DNA of 64,000 nt from Paremcibacter congregatus. Its GTDB lineage: Bacteria; Pseudomonadota; Alphaproteobacteria; Sphingomonadales; Emcibacteraceae. Location: the NCBI RefSeq assembly GCF_006385135.1, contig NZ_CP041025.1, forward strand, positions 3,379,501 through 3,443,500, written 5' to 3'. The position numbers were made by a program, and so were the translations under genes. The notes beneath the pieces were generated by a model that did not search any database, was not told the origin of the DNA, and saw nothing but the letters and a program-made list of their open reading frames with translations. Shown in pieces: positions 6,287 to 14,006 of this stretch (position 1 is its first letter; every line of letters begins with the position of its first letter).

Positions 6287-8020
6287 ATGCAACGCACCGG
6301 CGCCCGTCTTTTGAGAACCGCCCTGGAGAATCTTGGGGTCCATCATACCTTCGGCATTCCCGGGGTTCATACCACCGAGATCTATGACGAACTTAATCTG
6401 TCCAACCAAATCCGCCCCATGCTGGTCACCCATGAAGGCGGCGCATCCTTTATGGCCGATGCGGTCAGCCGCACCTCGGACAGTATCGGCGTGCTTGTCG
6501 TGGTGCCCGCCGCTGGCCTGACCCACGCCATGAGCGGCATCGGCGAGGCCTTTCTTGACGGCATTCCCCTGCTGGTGATCTCCGGCGGGGTGCGCACCGA
6601 CACGGATCATAAATATCAATTGCACGATATGGATATGCAGGCCCTGATGACGCCCCTGACCAAAAAGACATTCAAGATCACGCGCCATGATCAGGTGATG
6701 CCGATGATATATGAGGCCTATGCCTGCGCCATGAGCGGCGAACCCGGCCCGGTCTATGTGGAGCTGCCGGTCAATATCCAGTTCACCAAGGGGGCGGTCA
6801 CCGACCTGCCCGCGCCACCGACGCTCATCCGCTGCGCCAAACAGCTGGCAATGAAGGATATTGAGGCCGCGGCCCAGATGCTTCAAGACGCCCGGCAGGT
6901 TGGTCTGTTCCTCGGCTGGGGGGCAAAAGCGGCGCGCGCCGACGCCATCCGGATCGCCGACAGCCTCGCCGCCCCGGTCGCCACCAGCCTACAAGGCCTG
7001 ACAAGCTTCCCCCATGATCACCCATTGCATTGTGGTATGGGCTATGGTCCGGCGGCGGTGCCGGCGGCGGAGGCGGCCTTTGAGGCCTGCGATGTCATTT
7101 TGGCCGTCGGCGTACGTTTCGGCGAGATCGCCACCGCCAGCTATTCCATCCCCAATGCCGCCAAAATCATCCATATCGATATCAACCCGGACGCCCTCGG
7201 GGCCAATTATGCCGCCGCAATTGGTATTGAAGCCGACGCCGCCGTGGCCCTGAAGGCTCTGGCCGACGCGCTTCCGGCACAGGCGGCCTCGCCTCAAGAC
7301 ACCCCGATGATGCGCCTGATCGCCGACCAGGAAGCCGCCTATCGTCAGGAATGGCGCGATCACGCCTCTGACGGCAAGGTCAATCCCTGTCTTTTCTTTG
7401 ACGGGCTCGACAAGGCGCTGGCCTCTGACGCGATCGTGCTCGCCGATGACGGCAACCATACGTTTCTCGCCGCCGAGCTGATGCCGCTCGGCGGCGAACG
7501 GCGCTTTATCTCTCCCACCGATTTCAACTGCATGGGCTATTGCGTGCCCGCCGCCATTGCCGCCAAGCTGGAAAATCGCGAAGCCCAGGTGGTCGGCATC
7601 GTCGGCGACGGCGCCTTTTTGATGACCGCCATGGAAATCCTCACCGCCAGCGCTGACGGTCTCGGCGTGATTTATTTTATCTTTGCCGACGGTGAACTGA
7701 GCCAGATCGCCCAGGCCCAGGAAATTCCCTATAACCGCAAAGCCTGCACCGTCCTGCCCCGCTTAAAATACGCGCCTTTCGCCGAGTCAGTTGGCGCCGC
7801 CTACGTCAATATGGCAACCAACGCCGATATTGACAGCAGCCTGTCCCGCGCCTTTGCGGCGGCGGCGAAAGGACAGCCCGTGGTGGTCGAGGTTGCCATT
7901 GACTACAACAAGAAAACCCGCTTCACCAAGGGCGCGATCAAGGCCAATCTCGATCGGTTTGATTTCGGCACCAAGATGCGCTTTATCGGACGCGCGCTCA
8001 CCCGTAAGGTCACCGGCTGA
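6287..8020 (+). CDS. Thiamine-diphosphate-dependent enzyme (acetolactate synthase-like)
   Basis: 577 residues with the three-domain architecture of POX/ALS-type enzymes. The N-terminal Pyr domain has the ThDP-activating Glu50 in THEGGASFMADA. A central Rossmann-like domain runs from about 190 to 320. The C-terminal PP domain has GDG at 440-442, but the usual NN end of the ThDP motif reads FADGE. The start is an ATG behind an AGGGAAAA stretch. Such proteins cleave or join 2-oxo acids; the altered motif argues against a housekeeping acetolactate synthase, and no small regulatory subunit gene is nearby. Its stop overlaps the start of the FAD dehydrogenase gene by 1 bp, so the two are made together. 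Confidence 0.85.
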   Translation: MQRTGARLLRTALENLGVHHTFGIPGVHTTEIYDELNLSNQIRPMLVTHEGGASFMADAVSRTSDSIGVLVVVPAAGLTHAMSGIGEAFLDGIPLLVISGGVRTDTDHKYQLHDMDMQALMTPLTKKTFKITRHDQVMPMIYEAYACAMSGEPGPVYVELPVNIQFTKGAVTDLPAPPTLIRCAKQLAMKDIEAAAQMLQDARQVGLFLGWGAKAARADAIRIADSLAAPVATSLQGLTSFPHDHPLHCGMGYGPAAVPAAEAAFEACDVILAVGVRFGEIATASYSIPNAAKIIHIDINPDALGANYAAAIGIEADAAVALKALADALPAQAASPQDTPMMRLIADQEAAYRQEWRDHASDGKVNPCLFFDGLDKALASDAIVLADDGNHTFLAAELMPLGGERRFISPTDFNCMGYCVPAAIAAKLENREAQVVGIVGDGAFLMTAMEILTASADGLGVIYFIFADGELSQIAQAQEIPYNRKACTVLPRLKYAPFAESVGAAYVNMATNADIDSSLSRAFAAAAKGQPVVVEVAIDYNKKTRFTKGAIKANLDRFDFGTKMRFIGRALTRKVTG

Positions 8021-9624
8021 TGACGGACAAGACCGATATTCTGATCATCGGCGGCGGCATCGCGGGCGTCACGCTCGCGCTTGATCTGCTCGACCGGGGG
8101 GAAACGCGACAGATCACCCTGCTGGATGCCCAAGGGGAAGACGCCCTCGGCGGCCTGGCGAAATCGGCTTTTGGCGGCATGATGTTCGTCGACACGCCAC
8201 TGCAACGCAAATCCGGCATCCGGGACAGCCCCGATCGCGCCTGGGCGGACTGGCAGAATTTTGCCGATTTCGGCCCCGAAGACAACTGGCCCCGGGCCTG
8301 GGGGCGCTATTATGTCGATCAGGTTACACCACAGGTCCATGACTGGATCAGGGCCCAGGGGATAAAATTCCTCCCCGCCGTGCAATGGGTCGAACGCGGC
8401 CTGTTTCAACCGGGCAACAGCCTGCCGCGCTATCATGTGCTGTTCGGCACGGCCTACCATCTGATGACCGTATTAATTGACCGTTTGCGCGCCCAGGCCC
8501 GACAACAGGTCCGGTTCCGCTTTCATCATCGGGTCGAAAGCCTGATCACTGAGAACAACGACGTTATTGGCGTCACGGGCCGCAACAACGCCACGGGAGA
8601 AGCCTTCACCCTCACCGCCACCACCACCGTTATCGCCACCGGCGGCATTGGCGGCAACCACGCCAAGGTGCGGAACCACTGGCCGAAAAACTGGGGGAAG
8701 GCACCCCCCCGCATGCTCAACGGCAGCCACCCGAGCGCCGATGGCCATCTCCATGATCAGGTGGCCCAATTGGGCGGCCAGGTGACCCATCTCGACAAGA
8801 TGTGGAATTACGCCGCCGGGATCGCCCATCCGCAAGCGACATTCCCCAATCACGGGCTTAGCCTGGTGCCGACCCGCTCTTCTCTCTGGCTTGACCATGA
8901 AGGGCGGCGCATTGGCCCCCTGCCGCTGGTCACCGGGTTTGACACCCATTATCTCTGCAAGCAAGTGGCGCGGCAGGACCAGCCCTGGACCTGGCAGGTG
9001 ATGAACTGGAAAATCGCCCGGCGAGAACTCGCCATTTCCGGCGCTGCCCATAACCCGGACCTGCGCGACCGCAAAATGATCCGCTTTCTGGCCAAGCTGC
9101 TGCTGAAAGACGATGGGCTGGTGCGTCAGATGGTGGCGGAAAGCCCGGATTTTATCACCGCAGAGAATTTGCCGGAATTGGCGCAAAAGATGAACCAACT
9201 GACCGATGCGCCGCATGTGGATCTTGACCTGATGACGCGACAGATCAGCGCTTATGACCAGAATCTGGCGTGCGGAGCTAAGCTGCAAAATGACGATCAA
9301 ATCCGACGACTGCATCATCTGCGGCAATGGACCGGCGACCGGCTGCGCACCTGCAGGGATCAGCAGATTCTCGACCCCAAAGCCGGGCCCCTGCTCGCCA
9401 TTCGCACCCAGTTGATCACCCGGAAAACCCTTGGCGGCATTCAAACCAATCTGGATTGCGCCGTTCTGGATGCGGCGGGGGACGCCATTCCCCGCCTCTA
9501 TGCCATCGGGGAAGCCGCCGGGTTTGGCGGCGGCGGCGCATCGGGTAAAAAATCCCTCGAAGGCACCTTCCTCGCGGGCTGCGTCCTCACGGCCCGCCGG
9601 CTCGCCGAGGTGCTGACAAAATAG
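8020..9624 (+). CDS. FAD-binding dehydrogenase (fumarate reductase/ketosteroid dehydrogenase-like flavoprotein)
   Basis: 534 residues. The N-terminal dinucleotide-binding motif ILIIGGGIAGVTLALDLL is followed by a Glu/Asp-type ribose contact region. The C-terminus carries the FAD-binding signature YAIGEAAGFGGGGASGKKSLEGTFLAGC. The overall pattern matches the uncharacterised FAD-binding dehydrogenase family related to succinate/fumarate and 3-ketosteroid dehydrogenases. No signal peptide or heme motif is seen, so it is probably cytoplasmic. Translationally coupled to the ThDP enzyme, it may desaturate or oxidise the same pathway's intermediate. Confidence 0.8.
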   Translation: MTDKTDILIIGGGIAGVTLALDLLDRGETRQITLLDAQGEDALGGLAKSAFGGMMFVDTPLQRKSGIRDSPDRAWADWQNFADFGPEDNWPRAWGRYYVDQVTPQVHDWIRAQGIKFLPAVQWVERGLFQPGNSLPRYHVLFGTAYHLMTVLIDRLRAQARQQVRFRFHHRVESLITENNDVIGVTGRNNATGEAFTLTATTTVIATGGIGGNHAKVRNHWPKNWGKAPPRMLNGSHPSADGHLHDQVAQLGGQVTHLDKMWNYAAGIAHPQATFPNHGLSLVPTRSSLWLDHEGRRIGPLPLVTGFDTHYLCKQVARQDQPWTWQVMNWKIARRELAISGAAHNPDLRDRKMIRFLAKLLLKDDGLVRQMVAESPDFITAENLPELAQKMNQLTDAPHVDLDLMTRQISAYDQNLACGAKLQNDDQIRRLHHLRQWTGDRLRTCRDQQILDPKAGPLLAIRTQLITRKTLGGIQTNLDCAVLDAAGDAIPRLYAIGEAAGFGGGGASGKKSLEGTFLAGCVLTARRLAEVLTK

Positions 9625-9763
9625 ACTTATCCCTCTCCACTGCCTGCTGGAGCAGGGTTCAGGGGGGCAGAAAAGGCGGGGCGTTTCCTGCTTTACGGCC
9701 TCCGCTACACGATCCGATGCATTCCCTCCGTCTTGCTCTTTTCCCTTATTCCATTTTCCTTTC

Positions 9764-9790
9764 TTGACGGTATATGATTTTTAATATAAT
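9764..9790 (+). promoter_or_regulatory. putative promoter for the LLM monooxygenase gene
   Basis: TTGACG (9764-9769) and TATAAT (9785-9790) with a 15-nt spacer, shorter than ideal. They lie 39 bp before the start codon in an AT-rich stretch that stands out from the GC-rich flanks. This suggests that the LLM, aldolase and aminotransferase genes can be transcribed apart from the upstream pair. Confidence 0.4.
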
Positions 9791-9829
9791 ATTTCATTCA
9801 TGAACTAAATGACAATAGATGAGGTTTTT

Positions 9830-10927
9830 ATGTCGAGAGTGAAATCCCACCCCATGCGCGGCGGTAACGCCTTCAAGCTCGGCGTCTTTGGTGCCAACGC
9901 CGACGGCTGTCTGTCAATCACCAATCACGCCGACCGCTGGATGGCCGACTGGGACGATGTGGTGGCCGCCGCCCAGATGGCGGACCGGGCCGGGCTGGAC
10001 TTCTTCCTGCCGCTGGCGCGCTGGAAGGGTTTTGGCGGCGACACCAACGCCCGGCATATTTCCTATGAGACCTTCACCTTCGCCGCGGCGCTGGCCGGGC
10101 TTACCGAGCAGATCGCCCTGTTTTCCACCGTCCACACCCTGATTGTGCCGCCGGTCTATGCCGCCAAAGCCCTGGCCACCGTTGATCACGCCAGCCATGG
10201 CCGCGCCGGCCTGAATATCGTCTGCGGCTGGAACCAGCCGGAATTCGATATGTTCGGCCTGACCAAACCGGATCAGGTTTACGACCAGGGCAAGGAATGG
10301 TTCGAGATTCTGACCCGCACCCTGGAGGGTGGCGCCCCGTTTGATTATAAAGGCGATTATTTCGACCTGAAAGGCGTGTCCGGCGCCCCGGGCAGCGTGC
10401 AAGACCCCCATCCGGTGACCCTGTCGGCCGCCTTTTCGCCCCCCGGCCGTGATTTTGCCGCCAGCGCCTGCGACTGTATCTTCACCACATTCAACACCCA
10501 TGAAGACGCCCGCGAGACCATCGCCGATTTTCGTGCGCGGGTGGAAAAAGCCGACAGCAACGCCGGGGTTTTCGCCCCTGTGCATGTGGTCTGTCGCCCG
10601 ACCACCCAGGAAGCCGAGGACTATTACACCGCCTATGCGGTGACCGAAACCGACAATGCCGCCGTCGATCAGCATATGGCGATGAAGAAAAGCATGTCCG
10701 GGTCCCATGACCCAAAGGCCTATGATCTCTACCGCAAGCGTTTTGCGGGCGGCGCCGGGACTTACCCGTTGATCGGGACGCCGGAGCAGATCGCCGATGA
10801 AATGATCGCGCTGCATGATTTGGGTTTTGGCGGGCTGGCCCTGTCTTTCGTTAATCCGAAGTATGAATTGCCCTATTTCCTCGACCGGGTGCTGCCGTTG
10901 CTGAAAAAGGCCGGGATACGCACATAA
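9830..10927 (+). CDS. LLM-class flavin-dependent monooxygenase
   Basis: 365 residues from the ATG at 9830, which has GAGG 5 nt upstream; an in-frame ATG 21 nt earlier is less well placed. It has a bacterial-luciferase-like TIM barrel, with segments (ARWKGFGGDTN, YETFTFAAALAGLT, STVHTLIVPPVYAAKALATVDHASHGRAGLNIVCGWN) closest to the RutA/alkanal-monooxygenase-like group. Such enzymes use reduced FMN from a partner reductase to insert oxygen, often at C-N, C-S or carbonyl positions. No flavin reductase gene is next to it. It begins a three-gene run with the aldolase and aminotransferase. Confidence 0.85.
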   Translation: MSRVKSHPMRGGNAFKLGVFGANADGCLSITNHADRWMADWDDVVAAAQMADRAGLDFFLPLARWKGFGGDTNARHISYETFTFAAALAGLTEQIALFSTVHTLIVPPVYAAKALATVDHASHGRAGLNIVCGWNQPEFDMFGLTKPDQVYDQGKEWFEILTRTLEGGAPFDYKGDYFDLKGVSGAPGSVQDPHPVTLSAAFSPPGRDFAASACDCIFTTFNTHEDARETIADFRARVEKADSNAGVFAPVHVVCRPTTQEAEDYYTAYAVTETDNAAVDQHMAMKKSMSGSHDPKAYDLYRKRFAGGAGTYPLIGTPEQIADEMIALHDLGFGGLALSFVNPKYELPYFLDRVLPLLKKAGIRT

Positions 10928-11038
10928 GACTGCGATAAAATTCTATGGGAAAGGCGACCTAAAAGAAAGGCCTGGAAAAACCTGTGGCATTTATTTGATT
11001 TTACATATATCTTGATCCTTCACAAGGAAGAATAAGCT

Positions 11039-11773
11039 ATGCGCTGCAAAGACGCTCTACAGAATAATCATCCCCTTGGCTGCTTCTGGCTCTGTCTCGG
11101 GGCGCTGCCGCTGACGGAATTTGTCACGGAAACCTCCGCCGATGCGGTCGTGTTCGATGCCCAGCATGGATTGTGGGACCGCAGGTCGCTCGAAAGTGCC
11201 ATTGGCATGGTCAAGGATCAAATGATCCCCATGGTGCGGCTGGCCGACGGGTCGCGCTTCGCCATCAGCAGTGCGCTGGATGCAGGCGCAGAGGTGGTTA
11301 TCGTCCCGTTGATTGAAACGGCGGAAGAGGCGCACAACGCCGTCGACTGGGCCCTGTACCCCCCGCACGGCTCGCGATCCGGCGGCGGTATCCGGCCGTT
11401 ACGTGATTTTCCGGCCTATAAGGAACAGGCCGACAAGACCACCGTCACCGCCCTGATGATTGAAACCGCCCGCGGGGTGGATAATCTCGCCGAAATTCTC
11501 CAAACCCCGCATCTCGATATGATCTTCATTGGCACCGGCGATCTGTCGCTGTCTCTCGGGCTTGCCCCGACAGAGTCCGCCTATGAAGCCACCATTCAGG
11601 ACATCAAGCGTCAATGCGAAGCCGCGAATGTTTCCTGTGGCATTTTCACCGCGACATTACAGCAGGCGAAAGCCCGCCGGGATCAGGGCTTCAGCCTTGT
11701 GGTGATCGGTGATGATATCACCGCCAACCGCAGTTATTTTTCCACACAACTTACAGAATTTTCGGCCACATAA
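11039..11773 (+). CDS. HpcH/HpaI-family aldolase
   Basis: 244 residues of the class II pyruvate aldolase/citrate lyase beta family. Visible motifs are VVFDAQHG near residue 40 (the substrate-binding DxxHG region), IETARGVDNLAEI with the metal-binding Glu, and MIFIGTGDLSLSLGL with the metal-binding Asp. Members split 4-hydroxy-2-oxo acids into pyruvate and an aldehyde. A metal-dependent retro-aldol step would fit the end of a catabolic route with the neighbouring oxidoreductases and aminotransferase. The start is behind AAGGAAGAA. Confidence 0.85.
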   Translation: MRCKDALQNNHPLGCFWLCLGALPLTEFVTETSADAVVFDAQHGLWDRRSLESAIGMVKDQMIPMVRLADGSRFAISSALDAGAEVVIVPLIETAEEAHNAVDWALYPPHGSRSGGGIRPLRDFPAYKEQADKTTVTALMIETARGVDNLAEILQTPHLDMIFIGTGDLSLSLGLAPTESAYEATIQDIKRQCEAANVSCGIFTATLQQAKARRDQGFSLVVIGDDITANRSYFSTQLTEFSAT

Positions 11774-11803
11774 AGCCCGAACAAGACACATCAGGAGTTT
11801 TCG

Positions 11804-12985
11804 ATGTCAATAGCCCCTTCACAGACCGCCCTTTCCGGCCTTCAGGATCATATTCGGGCGATCCCGCTGGAAAATATCGCCAATATCGCCAAGGACGCCT
11901 TCACCAACAAGGAGATCCTGCCCCTGTGGTTCGGCGAAGGCGATATCAAAACGCCTGACTTCATCGGCCAGGCCATCACCTCCGCCATGCAGGAGGGCAA
12001 AGGCTTCTATTCTCATCAGAACGGCATTCCCGAATTACGTCAGGCGCTGGTCGATTATCTCGGCAAACTGAACGCCAAACCCATCACCATGGACCGGATC
12101 ACGGTCACATCCGGCGGCATGCCGGCGATTATGCTGGCGGTGCAGGCCACCGTGGGCCGGGGCGACAATGTGGTGATCATCGACCCGGTCTGGCCCAATA
12201 TTACCGGCGTGGTTCGTCTGATGGGTGCGGAAACCCGGTCCGTGCGTATGGATCTTGGCGATGACGGCTGGACCCTGGATGTGGAAAAGGTCGCCGCTGC
12301 CTGTGACAGCCGCACCAAAGCGATTTTCTTCGCCTCGCCCGGCAATCCCACCGGCGCGGTGCTGCCTGTGCCGGTGCAGAAGCAACTGCTCGAGCTCAGC
12401 CGCAAGACCGGCATCTGGATTTTCTCTGACGAGGTCTATTCCCGCATGTCCTACGAGATGCCCATGGTGCCGTCCTTCAGTGACATTGCGGAACCGGAAG
12501 ACCGGGTGATCATCATCAACAGTTTCTCTAAATCCTGGAGCATGACCGGGTCACGGCTTGGTTGGCTGATCCATCCGCCGAGCCTGGAAGCCACCCTGGC
12601 CATGATGGTGCAATATACGTCCAGCGGCACCACCACCTATTTGCAATATGGCGGGGTCGCCGCCTTGCAGCAGGGCGAGGATTTCGTCAAATTCATGACC
12701 AATTATTGCCGCGAAGGCATGGAGATTGTCTGCGGTGCGCTGGAGGATATTCCCCGGGTGATCCTGCGCCGCCGCCCCACCGCCGCCATGTACGCCTTCT
12801 TTGAAATTGACGGCATGGCGGACTCGAAACAGGCCTGCCTTGATATTCTGCGCAGCAGCAATGTCGGGCTTGCGCCGGGTTATTTCTTTGGCAAGGGTTC
12901 GGAAAGCTTCCTGCGCATCTGTTATTGCCGCTCGCCCGAGCAGCTCAATATCGCCATGGAGCGACTGAAGAAGGCCCTGAAATAA
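11804..12985 (+). CDS. Class I/II aminotransferase (PLP)
   Basis: 393 residues with the fold-type I aminotransferase pattern: YSHQNGIPELRQAL, the substrate/PLP region SPGNPTGAVLP, SDEVYSRMSYE, and the Schiff-base Lys243 in NSFSKSWSMTGSRLGW. RBS CAGGAG lies just before the start, 31 bp after the aldolase stop. It probably interconverts an amino acid and the 2-oxo acid handled by this cluster. Substrate specificity cannot be read from sequence alone. A strong terminator follows. Confidence 0.85.
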   Translation: MSIAPSQTALSGLQDHIRAIPLENIANIAKDAFTNKEILPLWFGEGDIKTPDFIGQAITSAMQEGKGFYSHQNGIPELRQALVDYLGKLNAKPITMDRITVTSGGMPAIMLAVQATVGRGDNVVIIDPVWPNITGVVRLMGAETRSVRMDLGDDGWTLDVEKVAAACDSRTKAIFFASPGNPTGAVLPVPVQKQLLELSRKTGIWIFSDEVYSRMSYEMPMVPSFSDIAEPEDRVIIINSFSKSWSMTGSRLGWLIHPPSLEATLAMMVQYTSSGTTTYLQYGGVAALQQGEDFVKFMTNYCREGMEIVCGALEDIPRVILRRRPTAAMYAFFEIDGMADSKQACLDILRSSNVGLAPGYFFGKGSESFLRICYCRSPEQLNIAMERLKKALK

Positions 12986-13046
12986 GGCCGCGCAAAGACA
13001 ATAAAGCCATTAACCCTTTATTAACCATAAGCATCCCACAAAAACA

Positions 13047-13080
13047 CCGGGCGCACCTTTCAGGGTGCGCCCGGTTGTTT
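13047..13080 (+). terminator. Rho-independent terminator after the aminotransferase gene
   Basis: An 11-bp GC-rich stem, CCGGGCGCACC and GGTGCGCCCGG, encloses the loop TTTCAG and is followed by TTGTTT. It closes the five-gene metabolic run and may also serve the convergent PhnA-like gene. Confidence 0.8.
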
Positions 13081-13138
13081 AAGCCGTTAATACAAAACAA
13101 ATAACTTAATATTATATCTTGCTAATTTGTAGATGCAT

Positions 13139-13717
13139 CTAACTGGATTTCTTCACGAATTTGGTCAAAATTACGATATGTTGTCCATTGACCCGGCCTT
13201 CGATATGTTCCGGGTTATCCGCCACCAGAGAGATATTGCGCACCGCCGTGCCGCGCTTGGCGGTAAAGCCACCACCCTTTACCGGCAGGTCCTTGATCAG
13301 GGTTACCGTATCGCCGGCGGCGAGCGTCGCGCCATTACTGTCTTTATGGACGATGCCATCCTCATCACCAGCCCCCTCGCCCGCCTCGGCCCAGGCCTGA
13401 ACCTCGGGCTCGAGATAGAGCATATCCAGCAGATCCTGAGGCCAGCCTTCACCGCGCAAAGCCGTGAGCATCCGCCAGGCCACCACCTGCACTGCCGGCA
13501 CCGGTGTCCACATGCTGTCATTCAGGCAGCGCCAGTGATTGGGCTCCACCTGTTCCGGATGGCTGATCTGGGCATGACAGGTCGCGCAGAGCAGCACCGC
13601 CTGATCCGCCGTGTCATCGGAGGCGGGCGGCACGGGATAAACGGTGAGCCCGTCCTCGGCGCCACACAATTCACATTTATTTTCGGCCCGGGCGCGCAAG
13701 GTGGTTTCGATGGTCAT
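13139..13717 (-). CDS. PhnA-domain protein
   Basis: 192 residues from the ATG at 13717, which has AGGAAA 8 nt upstream. The N-terminal zinc ribbon shows CELCGAEDGL and CATCHAQI. The C-terminal PhnA domain follows (DSNGATLAAGDTVTLIKDLPVKGGGFTAKRGTAVRNI), with the SH3-like barrel typical of the family. Despite the name, PhnA-domain proteins have no established role in phosphonate breakdown, and there are no phn genes here. Function open. Confidence 0.8.
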   Translation of the reverse strand: MTIETTLRARAENKCELCGAEDGLTVYPVPPASDDTADQAVLLCATCHAQISHPEQVEPNHWRCLNDSMWTPVPAVQVVAWRMLTALRGEGWPQDLLDMLYLEPEVQAWAEAGEGAGDEDGIVHKDSNGATLAAGDTVTLIKDLPVKGGGFTAKRGTAVRNISLVADNPEHIEGRVNGQHIVILTKFVKKSS

Positions 13718-14006
13718 ATGATTACGTTTCCTAAAGGTATAAATATGGCCGCCTTTATGACTCTCCCCCGTCGCCAAGGCAAGGAAAAGTTATCCTTTGC
13801 CCCCCCTATTCCACTCAGGCCGCGACCCGGATCTTGCCAAGGACCGCCCGCTGTGGTTAAATTCAGAAGAAATTTAAGAGTGATAGATAATTGGGGGCGC
13901 ATATGATGTGGAACAACCCTTCCATTAGTTTAGAGAAATGCCGAAATATTAAATTCCACCATACCGACCCCACAGCGGGCGAGCGGAAAGTGATGGAGCT
14001 TGGGGG

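What the first reader, a model, noticed from the sequence alone, without database searches (positions are those of the whole stretch)
6287..12985. Unassigned five-enzyme cluster: ThDP enzyme, FAD dehydrogenase, LLM monooxygenase, HpcH/HpaI aldolase, aminotransferase
All genes are co-directional, the first two are fused by a 1-bp overlap, and a terminator closes the set. The chemistry suggests transamination of an amino acid, 2-oxo-acid decarboxylation or carboligation, desaturation, oxygen insertion, and retro-aldol release of pyruvate. I know no characterised pathway with this combination. The ThDP enzyme's altered PP motif (FADGE in place of NN) argues for an unusual substrate.
Basis: inference. 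Interest (0 to 1): 0.55.

Follow-up and report, generated by a model that had tools for sequence, protein, structure and literature searches.

The report
Two enzyme modules placed side by side
Five neighbouring enzyme genes in an Emcibacter-like bacterium behave as two separate sets, one of which is a thiamine-dependent enzyme and a flavin enzyme that accompany each other across several bacterial phyla and whose function is still unknown.

Summary
The five genes are real, co-directional and correctly placed. They are not one conserved five-gene cluster but two modules. Module A is a ThDP enzyme plus an FAD dehydrogenase of one PRK12834 subfamily. In 37 of 80 loci examined the FAD gene lies upstream of ThDP on the same strand (7 phyla); of the other 43 genomes 30 hold it elsewhere, against 5 of 248 background genomes. 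The window's order (ThDP first, 1-bp overlap) is the reverse of those 37, and the other Emcibacter loci examined have the genes apart, so the pair probably re-formed here. Module B is LLM monooxygenase, HpcH/HpaI aldolase and aminotransferase; it comes and goes downstream of FAD within the genus, and LLM with an aldolase recurs in other alphaproteobacteria. A MdlD-like aldehyde dehydrogenase sits beside FAD in Emcibacter and beside ThDP in Woeseiaceae-type genomes. The 'altered NN motif' is a family trait (D468 in 84 of 84 rows), not an oddity. Likely chemistry, inferred only: ThDP cleavage of a 2-oxo acid to an aldehyde, plus FAD-dependent alpha,beta-dehydrogenation; substrate unknown. No characterised counterpart appeared in the searches made. 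Interesting as a widespread uncharacterised enzyme pair; the enzyme families are known.

The parts
6287..8020 (+). Module A: ThDP-dependent enzyme, 577 aa (TPP_enzyme N, M, C domains); 2-oxo-acid-cleaving or carboligating, family uncharacterised
   Evidence: Pfam PF02776/PF00205/PF02775; best NCBIfam matches acetolactate synthases, those shown all below cut-off; predicted fold Z 41.6 to ThDP-dependent HKA synthase and 40.7 to AHAS; E50, H113, D441, D468 invariant in 84 rows
8020..9624 (+). Module A: FAD-binding dehydrogenase, 534 aa, ThDP-linked subfamily of PRK12834 (NF009472)
   Evidence: 498 bits, cut-off 476; fold of urocanate/fumarate reductase and 3-ketosteroid dehydrogenase; linked subfamily split from general PRK12834 with 100/100 support
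9809..10927 (+). Module B: luciferase-like (LLM) FMN-dependent monooxygenase, 372 aa
   Evidence: Bac_luciferase PF00296, 190 bits; RutA, SfnG and NtaA models matched below cut-off; a flavin reductase follows the relative in Rhizobium L226
11039..11773 (+). Module B: HpcH/HpaI-type aldolase, 244 aa
   Evidence: PF03328, 87 bits; HpaI model 110 bits, cut-off 368.8, not reached
11804..12985 (+). Module B: PLP aminotransferase class I/II, 393 aa, PRK06108 subfamily
   Evidence: NF004770 456 bits, cut-off 422; PF00155
13046..13075 (.). 12-bp-stem hairpin between the convergent aminotransferase and YjdM genes; T-run on the minus strand

Best explanation
The five genes are two modules. Module A (ThDP + FAD) is an old pair of enzymes that probably act on the same compound: the ThDP enzyme forms an acyl anion from a 2-oxo acid (loss of CO2) and releases it mainly as an aldehyde, which a MdlD-like aldehyde dehydrogenase, encoded elsewhere in this genome, oxidises; the FAD enzyme adds or removes a double bond next to the carbonyl of the substrate or product. 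Module B (LLM oxygenase, HpcH/HpaI aldolase, aminotransferase) is a separate degradative block, probably hydroxylation, retro-aldol cleavage and transamination, which in Emcibacter lies behind the FAD gene and whose aminotransferase could supply the 2-oxo acid to module A. Shown here: the two-module anatomy, the co-occurrence and the recurring neighbours. Inferred: every reaction and their order. Unknown: the substrate.
For: Adjacency: FAD upstream of ThDP, same strand, in 37 of 80 loci (35 with gaps of 25-299 bp), 7 phyla (phyla). Co-occurrence: of the 43 genomes without adjacent FAD, 30 hold it elsewhere (28 at 713-854 bits, 2 fragments at 399 and 415); in a phylum sample of 249, ThDP is in 3 and all 3 have linked FAD adjacent, while linked FAD (687 bits or more) is in 6; Fisher 30/43 against 5/248 p about 1e-25, lineages not independent. 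The window's reversed order inside a genus whose other loci have them apart, with both proteins in the Emcibacter clade, suggests re-joining. Aldehyde dehydrogenase: divergent from FAD in 8 of 10 same-genus FAD loci (in L166 the contig ends too soon to tell); a 34-38% relative convergent with ThDP in L031, L046, L047, L055, L067, and near it in L073; both kinds match MdlD best, below cut-off; the window genome keeps a 67% copy at 1.24 Mb. FMN 2-hydroxyacid dehydrogenase relatives: between FAD and ThDP in L082, next to FAD in L205, about 6 kb from ThDP in L048. A methionine-type aminotransferase two genes after ThDP in L033. LLM beside an aldolase-SDR fusion in L230 (plus another aminotransferase) and L231.
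Against: No substrate evidence. 13 of 43 genomes with unpaired ThDP gave no FAD match, among them Marinobacter sp. ELB17 (L076), and G008 (97% complete) has ThDP without FAD, so the pair is not obligate. 3 of 6 genomes with linked FAD in the phylum sample lack ThDP. The 80 loci are the best-scoring of 205 found, not a random draw. Aldehyde dehydrogenase neighbours come from two or three lineages and different branches (25-38% identity between them); they are 7 of 119 immediate neighbours. The best-ranked folds for the ThDP enzyme are carboligases (HKA synthase, AHAS) rather than decarboxylases.
Confidence: 0.45

Rival explanations
1. Module A is a carboligase system: the ThDP enzyme joins a 2-oxo-acid-derived acyl anion to a second carbonyl compound (acyloin or alpha-hydroxy-beta-keto acid), and the FAD enzyme then desaturates or reduces the new ketone. 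The aldehyde dehydrogenase would be incidental.
For: Nearest sequences and best-ranked folds are the ThDP-dependent HKA synthase BbmA and AHAS. The FAD fold includes ketone dehydrogenases (3-ketosteroid, cyclohexanone).
Against: The Arg of the AHAS loop GARFDDR is I or L (position 281) in 84 of 84 rows, and the Gln of FQE is H113 in 84 of 84 (register, counts). Aldehyde dehydrogenase recurs beside the pair.
Confidence: 0.25
2. One reading: one five-enzyme pathway encoded as one unit, starting with transamination and ending in retro-aldol release of pyruvate.
For: FAD-(LLM)-aldolase-aminotransferase is contiguous in 7 of 10 same-genus FAD loci (4 with LLM, 3 without); the genes are co-directional and ThDP-FAD overlap.
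Against: ThDP is elsewhere in the same-genus loci examined; the block is absent behind FAD in L164-L166 and present without FAD on the contig in L162; LLM is missing in L158-L160 and split in L161; among the loci fetched with ThDP no relative of LLM or the aldolase was found in the held flanks and one distant aminotransferase was, L033.
Confidence: 0.2
3. Chance juxtaposition: the two modules serve unrelated pathways and merely adjoin in this genus. (Not exclusive with the chemistry given for module A.)
For: Both modules occur independently. The gap between FAD and LLM is long (184 bp).
Against: FAD and the block have stayed contiguous in 7 of 10 loci while the proteins diverged to 64-69% (FAD), 54-64% (aldolase) and 73-80% (aminotransferase) identity to the window's.
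Confidence: 0.3

Closest known systems
Acetohydroxyacid synthase (AHAS/ALS) large subunit
   Same: Three-domain ThDP fold, Z 40.7 over 520 residues, rmsd 2.6; catalytic Glu (E50) and GDG motif; best NCBIfam match
   Different: 310 bits against a cut-off of 538; Gln of FQE replaced by an invariant His; GARFDDR replaced by RFxE(I/L); NN replaced by x-D; conserved basic C-terminal tail; no small subunit among the five genes
ThDP-dependent HKA synthase BbmA (PDB 8x3x)
   Same: Best PDB sequence match (4.8e-59) and best-ranked fold, Z 41.6 over 515 residues, rmsd 2.1
   Different: 28% identity in the structural alignment; keeps NN where this family has x-D; no FAD partner known to me (recalled)
Mandelate pathway (MdlB-MdlC-MdlD; recalled)
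   Same: Same sort of parts recur around module A: ThDP enzyme, MdlD-like aldehyde dehydrogenase, FMN 2-hydroxyacid dehydrogenase
   Different: MdlD model 309-400 bits, cut-off 550; the parts were not seen all together; adds an FAD enzyme with no counterpart in that pathway (recalled)
PRK12834 FAD-binding dehydrogenases (NF009472)
   Same: 498 bits, above the cut-off; R468, K469, G472, G473 invariant in both groups
   Different: The ThDP-linked subfamily is a separate clade, 100/100; the window protein is 35-38% identical to eight general members; S281 and N329 in 71 of 71 linked rows against R (8 of 8) and T/D (7 and 1 of 8)
Fumarate/urocanate reductase and 3-ketosteroid dehydrogenase
   Same: Same fold, Z 33-39
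   Different: 17-23% identity in the structural alignments; the His before TMGG of yeast fumarate reductase Osm1 aligns with R468, and the Arg of NRLGG of flavocytochrome c3 with Ser

Membership tests
Acetohydroxyacid synthase | Score above NCBIfam cut-off for the large subunit | tested here: not met
   TIGR00118 309.9 bits, cut-off 538.35
Acetohydroxyacid synthase | Active-site Arg of the RFDDR loop and Gln of FQE (roles recalled) | tested here: not met
   I/L at 281 and H at 113 in 84 of 84 rows (register)
ThDP-dependent enzymes (TPP_enzyme superfamily) | N, M and C domains, catalytic Glu, GDG and Mg2+ ligand position | tested here: met
   PF02776, PF00205, PF02775 above cut-off; E50, G440-D441-G442, D468 invariant
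2-oxo-acid decarboxylase | Decarboxylation with release of aldehyde | not testable with these tools
   Only indirect: H113 and aldehyde dehydrogenase neighbours
PRK12834 FAD-binding dehydrogenase | Score above cut-off of NF009472 | tested here: met
   498.4 bits, cut-off 476
Fumarate reductase | His before TMGG and Arg in NRLGG (roles recalled) | tested here: not met
   R468 and S512 at the aligned positions
RutA / SfnG / NtaA monooxygenases | Score above cut-off of the equivalog or subfamily model | tested here: not met
   121.7/498.3, 139.4/382.95, 140.4/279.7 bits
HpaI 4-hydroxy-2-oxoheptanedioate aldolase | Score above cut-off of TIGR02311 | tested here: not met
   110 bits, cut-off 368.8; PF03328 met
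PRK06108 aminotransferase subfamily | Score above cut-off of NF004770 | tested here: met
   456 bits, cut-off 422

The most novel reading that the evidence does not exclude
The ThDP enzyme and its linked FAD enzyme form an undescribed two-enzyme metabolic module, kept together or re-joined in at least seven phyla, apparently in aerobes and sulphate reducers alike (lifestyles recalled from the taxon names), in which acyl-anion chemistry and alpha,beta-dehydrogenation of one intermediate are coupled: a widespread route for 2-oxo-acid or lipid-derived carbon that has not been described.
Probability: 0.35. Interest if true: 0.65.

Novelty: new variant of a known kind. Interest (0 to 1): 0.42.

Why it matters
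Automatic annotation would probably call the ThDP protein an acetolactate synthase and the FAD protein a generic dehydrogenase. Here they are shown to be a specific partnership with its own sequence signatures, spread over several phyla, so one biochemical assignment would carry over to many genomes. The window species, where the pair sits in reversed order with overlapping reading frames, is a natural test bench.

Tried and rejected
Rejected: the PP-motif change as a sign of an unusual enzyme (it is family-wide). Rejected: acetolactate synthase identity. Rejected: a fumarate-reductase active site. Considered and left weak: a third core partner. A Pfam tally of 119 immediate neighbours from 70 loci (near-duplicates, the window and L157 dropped; only proteins of 151-619 aa kept) gave aldehyde dehydrogenase 7, DUF456 5, acyl-CoA dehydrogenase 4, fatty-acid desaturase 3, FMN dehydrogenase 2; several of these come from one lineage each. 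Considered and left weak: a periplasmic cytochrome c / MauG-like / beta-helix operon. It lies beside the aldehyde dehydrogenase in this genome and beside FAD in Woeseiaceae-type genomes, and the beta-helix gene is found in 6 of 50 ThDP genomes (50 of the 80 were given to the call) against 2 of 248 other genomes of the phylum sample, one of which, G250, also has ThDP (Fisher p 0.0004). But five of the six are one lineage, the sixth is Kordiimonas, where it lies about 14 kb from FAD, and in G250 it lies far from the pair. Mirror-tree correlation of the pair was only moderate, rho 0.37 over 61 genomes, best of 1000 permutations 0.16. Paper searches listed no study of the pair or the cluster; only listed rows and abstract starts were seen (20 of 130 and 15 of 54 papers), no paper was opened, and the library holds open-licence papers only. 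The VIA-align lists are no search and exclude no family.

Full report
What is there. The window lies at 3,379,501-3,443,500 of a single 4.19-Mb contig. By its ThDP protein its nearest named relatives are genomes titled Emcibacter, Sphingomonadales or Alphaproteobacteria (75-77%), so I call it Emcibacter-like. The five ORFs stand at the stated coordinates, all on the + strand, and belong to the stated enzyme classes. ThDP and FAD share one base at 8020. The FAD protein passes the PRK12834 cut-off and the aminotransferase the PRK06108 cut-off; LLM and aldolase pass none, and ThDP none of the 25 best shown. A strong hairpin at 13046-13075 follows the aminotransferase gene, but its T-run is on the minus strand, and the next gene is a convergent YjdM/PhnA gene at 13142-13717, minus strand, 71% identical to its relative in L157.

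Module A. A scan of genome contigs with the ThDP protein found 205 relatives, of which the best 80 loci were kept; the rest were not seen. A relative of the FAD protein lies upstream of ThDP on the same strand in 37 of the 80: 35 with gaps of 25-299 bp, L082 and L029 with 1.2 and 2.1 kb; in L032 and L072 the FAD match is partial. These 37 cover Pseudomonadota, Myxococcota, Thermodesulfobacteriota, Spirochaetota, Balneolota, Bacteroidota and Calditrichota (titles, labels). Of the 43 loci without adjacent FAD, seven have under 2 kb of upstream DNA. Searching those 43 genomes with the FAD profile gave a match in 30: 28 at 713-854 bits and two fragments at 399 and 415 bits. Together 67 of 80 ThDP genomes hold an FAD relative of this kind; 13 of 43 gave none. 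In a phylum-wide sample of 249 genomes ThDP occurs in 3, including the window's own, and in all three the linked FAD gene is adjacent; linked FAD (687 bits or more) occurs in 6, so 3 lack ThDP, and a further 25 genomes have only general PRK12834 proteins at 490-558 bits. In a tree of 79 FAD proteins the linked group of 71 is split from eight general members with full support. LLM and aldolase relatives were found in the held flanks of none of the fetched ThDP loci, and an aminotransferase relative (25%) in one, L033.

The pair in Emcibacter. Other genomes of the genus carry both proteins but not side by side: the ten FAD loci examined (L155-L161, L164-L166) have no ThDP, and the ThDP loci L017-L023 have no FAD in the held flanks. 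Kordiimonas, next to Emcibacter in both trees, has the usual FAD-ThDP order. Of the loci seen, the window alone has ThDP-FAD, with overlapping frames. Both window proteins fall in the Emcibacter clade, so the simplest reading is that the two genes were separated and came together again in reversed order. This is inference from trees and order.

Module B. Of ten same-genus FAD loci, four have LLM-aldolase-aminotransferase downstream (L155, L156, L157, L161; in L161 LLM is split in two ORFs), three have aldolase-aminotransferase only (L158-L160), three have neither (L164-L166); L162 has the block without FAD on the contig. Outside the genus, LLM relatives of 58-59% sit beside an aldolase fused to a short-chain dehydrogenase in L230 and L231, with a HisC-like aminotransferase also in L230. 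A HpcH/HpaI gene is divergent from LLM in Neorhizobium L228, and a flavin reductase follows LLM in Rhizobium L226. In L163 a 67% LLM relative lies with a sodium symporter, a 50% aminotransferase, a kynureninase-like protein (241 bits, cut-off 246.4), a hydrolase and a short-chain dehydrogenase. These settings fit a degradative block for a nitrogen-containing compound; this is inference.

Other parts. A MdlD-like aldehyde dehydrogenase is divergent from FAD in eight of the ten same-genus FAD loci (L155-L161, L164; L165 lacks it, L166 ends too soon), in the place where the window has ThDP. A 34-38% relative is convergent with ThDP in L031, L046, L047, L055, L067, and nearby in L073; a more distant one stands beside ThDP in L020 and L023. 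The window genome keeps its copy at 1,238,188-1,239,594 (67%) in a run of TonB receptor, aldehyde dehydrogenase, cytochrome c, MauG-like di-haem protein and beta-helix protein. Relatives of the last three (38-44%, 62-65%, 58-61%) stand divergent from FAD in L207-L212. FMN 2-hydroxyacid dehydrogenase relatives lie between FAD and ThDP in L082, next to FAD in L205, and about 6 kb from ThDP in L048.

Residues and folds. AlphaFold models are confident (pLDDT 91.5 and 89.0). The ThDP model ranks first with the HKA synthase BbmA (Z 41.6, 515 residues, rmsd 2.1) and AHAS (Z 40.7, 520 residues, rmsd 2.6); these are tied. In 84 aligned rows (the window included, Kordiimonas twice) E50, H113, E280, D412, N414, D468 and G469 never vary, position 467 is N in 49, H in 13, S in 11 and A in 9, and a basic C-terminal tail (K563, R569, R573) is kept. 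The FAD model has the fold of flavocytochrome c3, urocanate reductase and ketosteroid dehydrogenases, but not the two fumarate-reductase residues that could be aligned.

Interpretation. The pairing is strong evidence that ThDP and FAD serve one process. Aldehyde dehydrogenase, 2-hydroxyacid dehydrogenase and aminotransferase neighbours in separate lineages point to 2-oxo acid in, aldehyde out, hence the decarboxylase reading; the best-ranked folds point rather to carboligation, hence the main rival. Substrate and direction remain open. The window's five genes are best described as module A and module B side by side, possibly linked through the aminotransferase.

Noticed in passing
window:13142-13717, minus strand: YjdM/PhnA-domain gene, 71% identical to its relative in L157; the + strand ORF 13133-13906 that covers the same stretch has no family match and is probably not a gene.
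   Followed up: yes
L252:4152-11468 (G000:C1 about 1,235,651-1,242,967): Tight run of TonB receptor, MdlD-like aldehyde dehydrogenase, cytochrome c, MauG/MbnH-like di-haem protein and TIGR03805 beta-helix protein; the last three recur divergent from FAD in L207-L212, and in L263 and L264 near a TonB receptor without FAD.
   Followed up: partly
window:44001-64000: G+C falls from 50-59% to 38-44%, possibly an acquired region.
   Followed up: no
L041:10285-11829: A second ThDP-enzyme gene directly follows the ThDP gene of the FAD-ThDP pair in a Myxococcales genome.
   Followed up: no
G011:C26 (L161), also G009:C29 and G014:C160: LLM is split into two ORFs in L161; the LLM matches in G009 and G014 were flagged with one in-frame stop, although a 365-aa ORF spans each, so decay is likely only in G011.
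   Followed up: no
L163:4648-11626: LLM, sodium symporter, aminotransferase, kynureninase-like gene, hydrolase and SDR in a row, a possible uncharacterised catabolic operon.
   Followed up: partly
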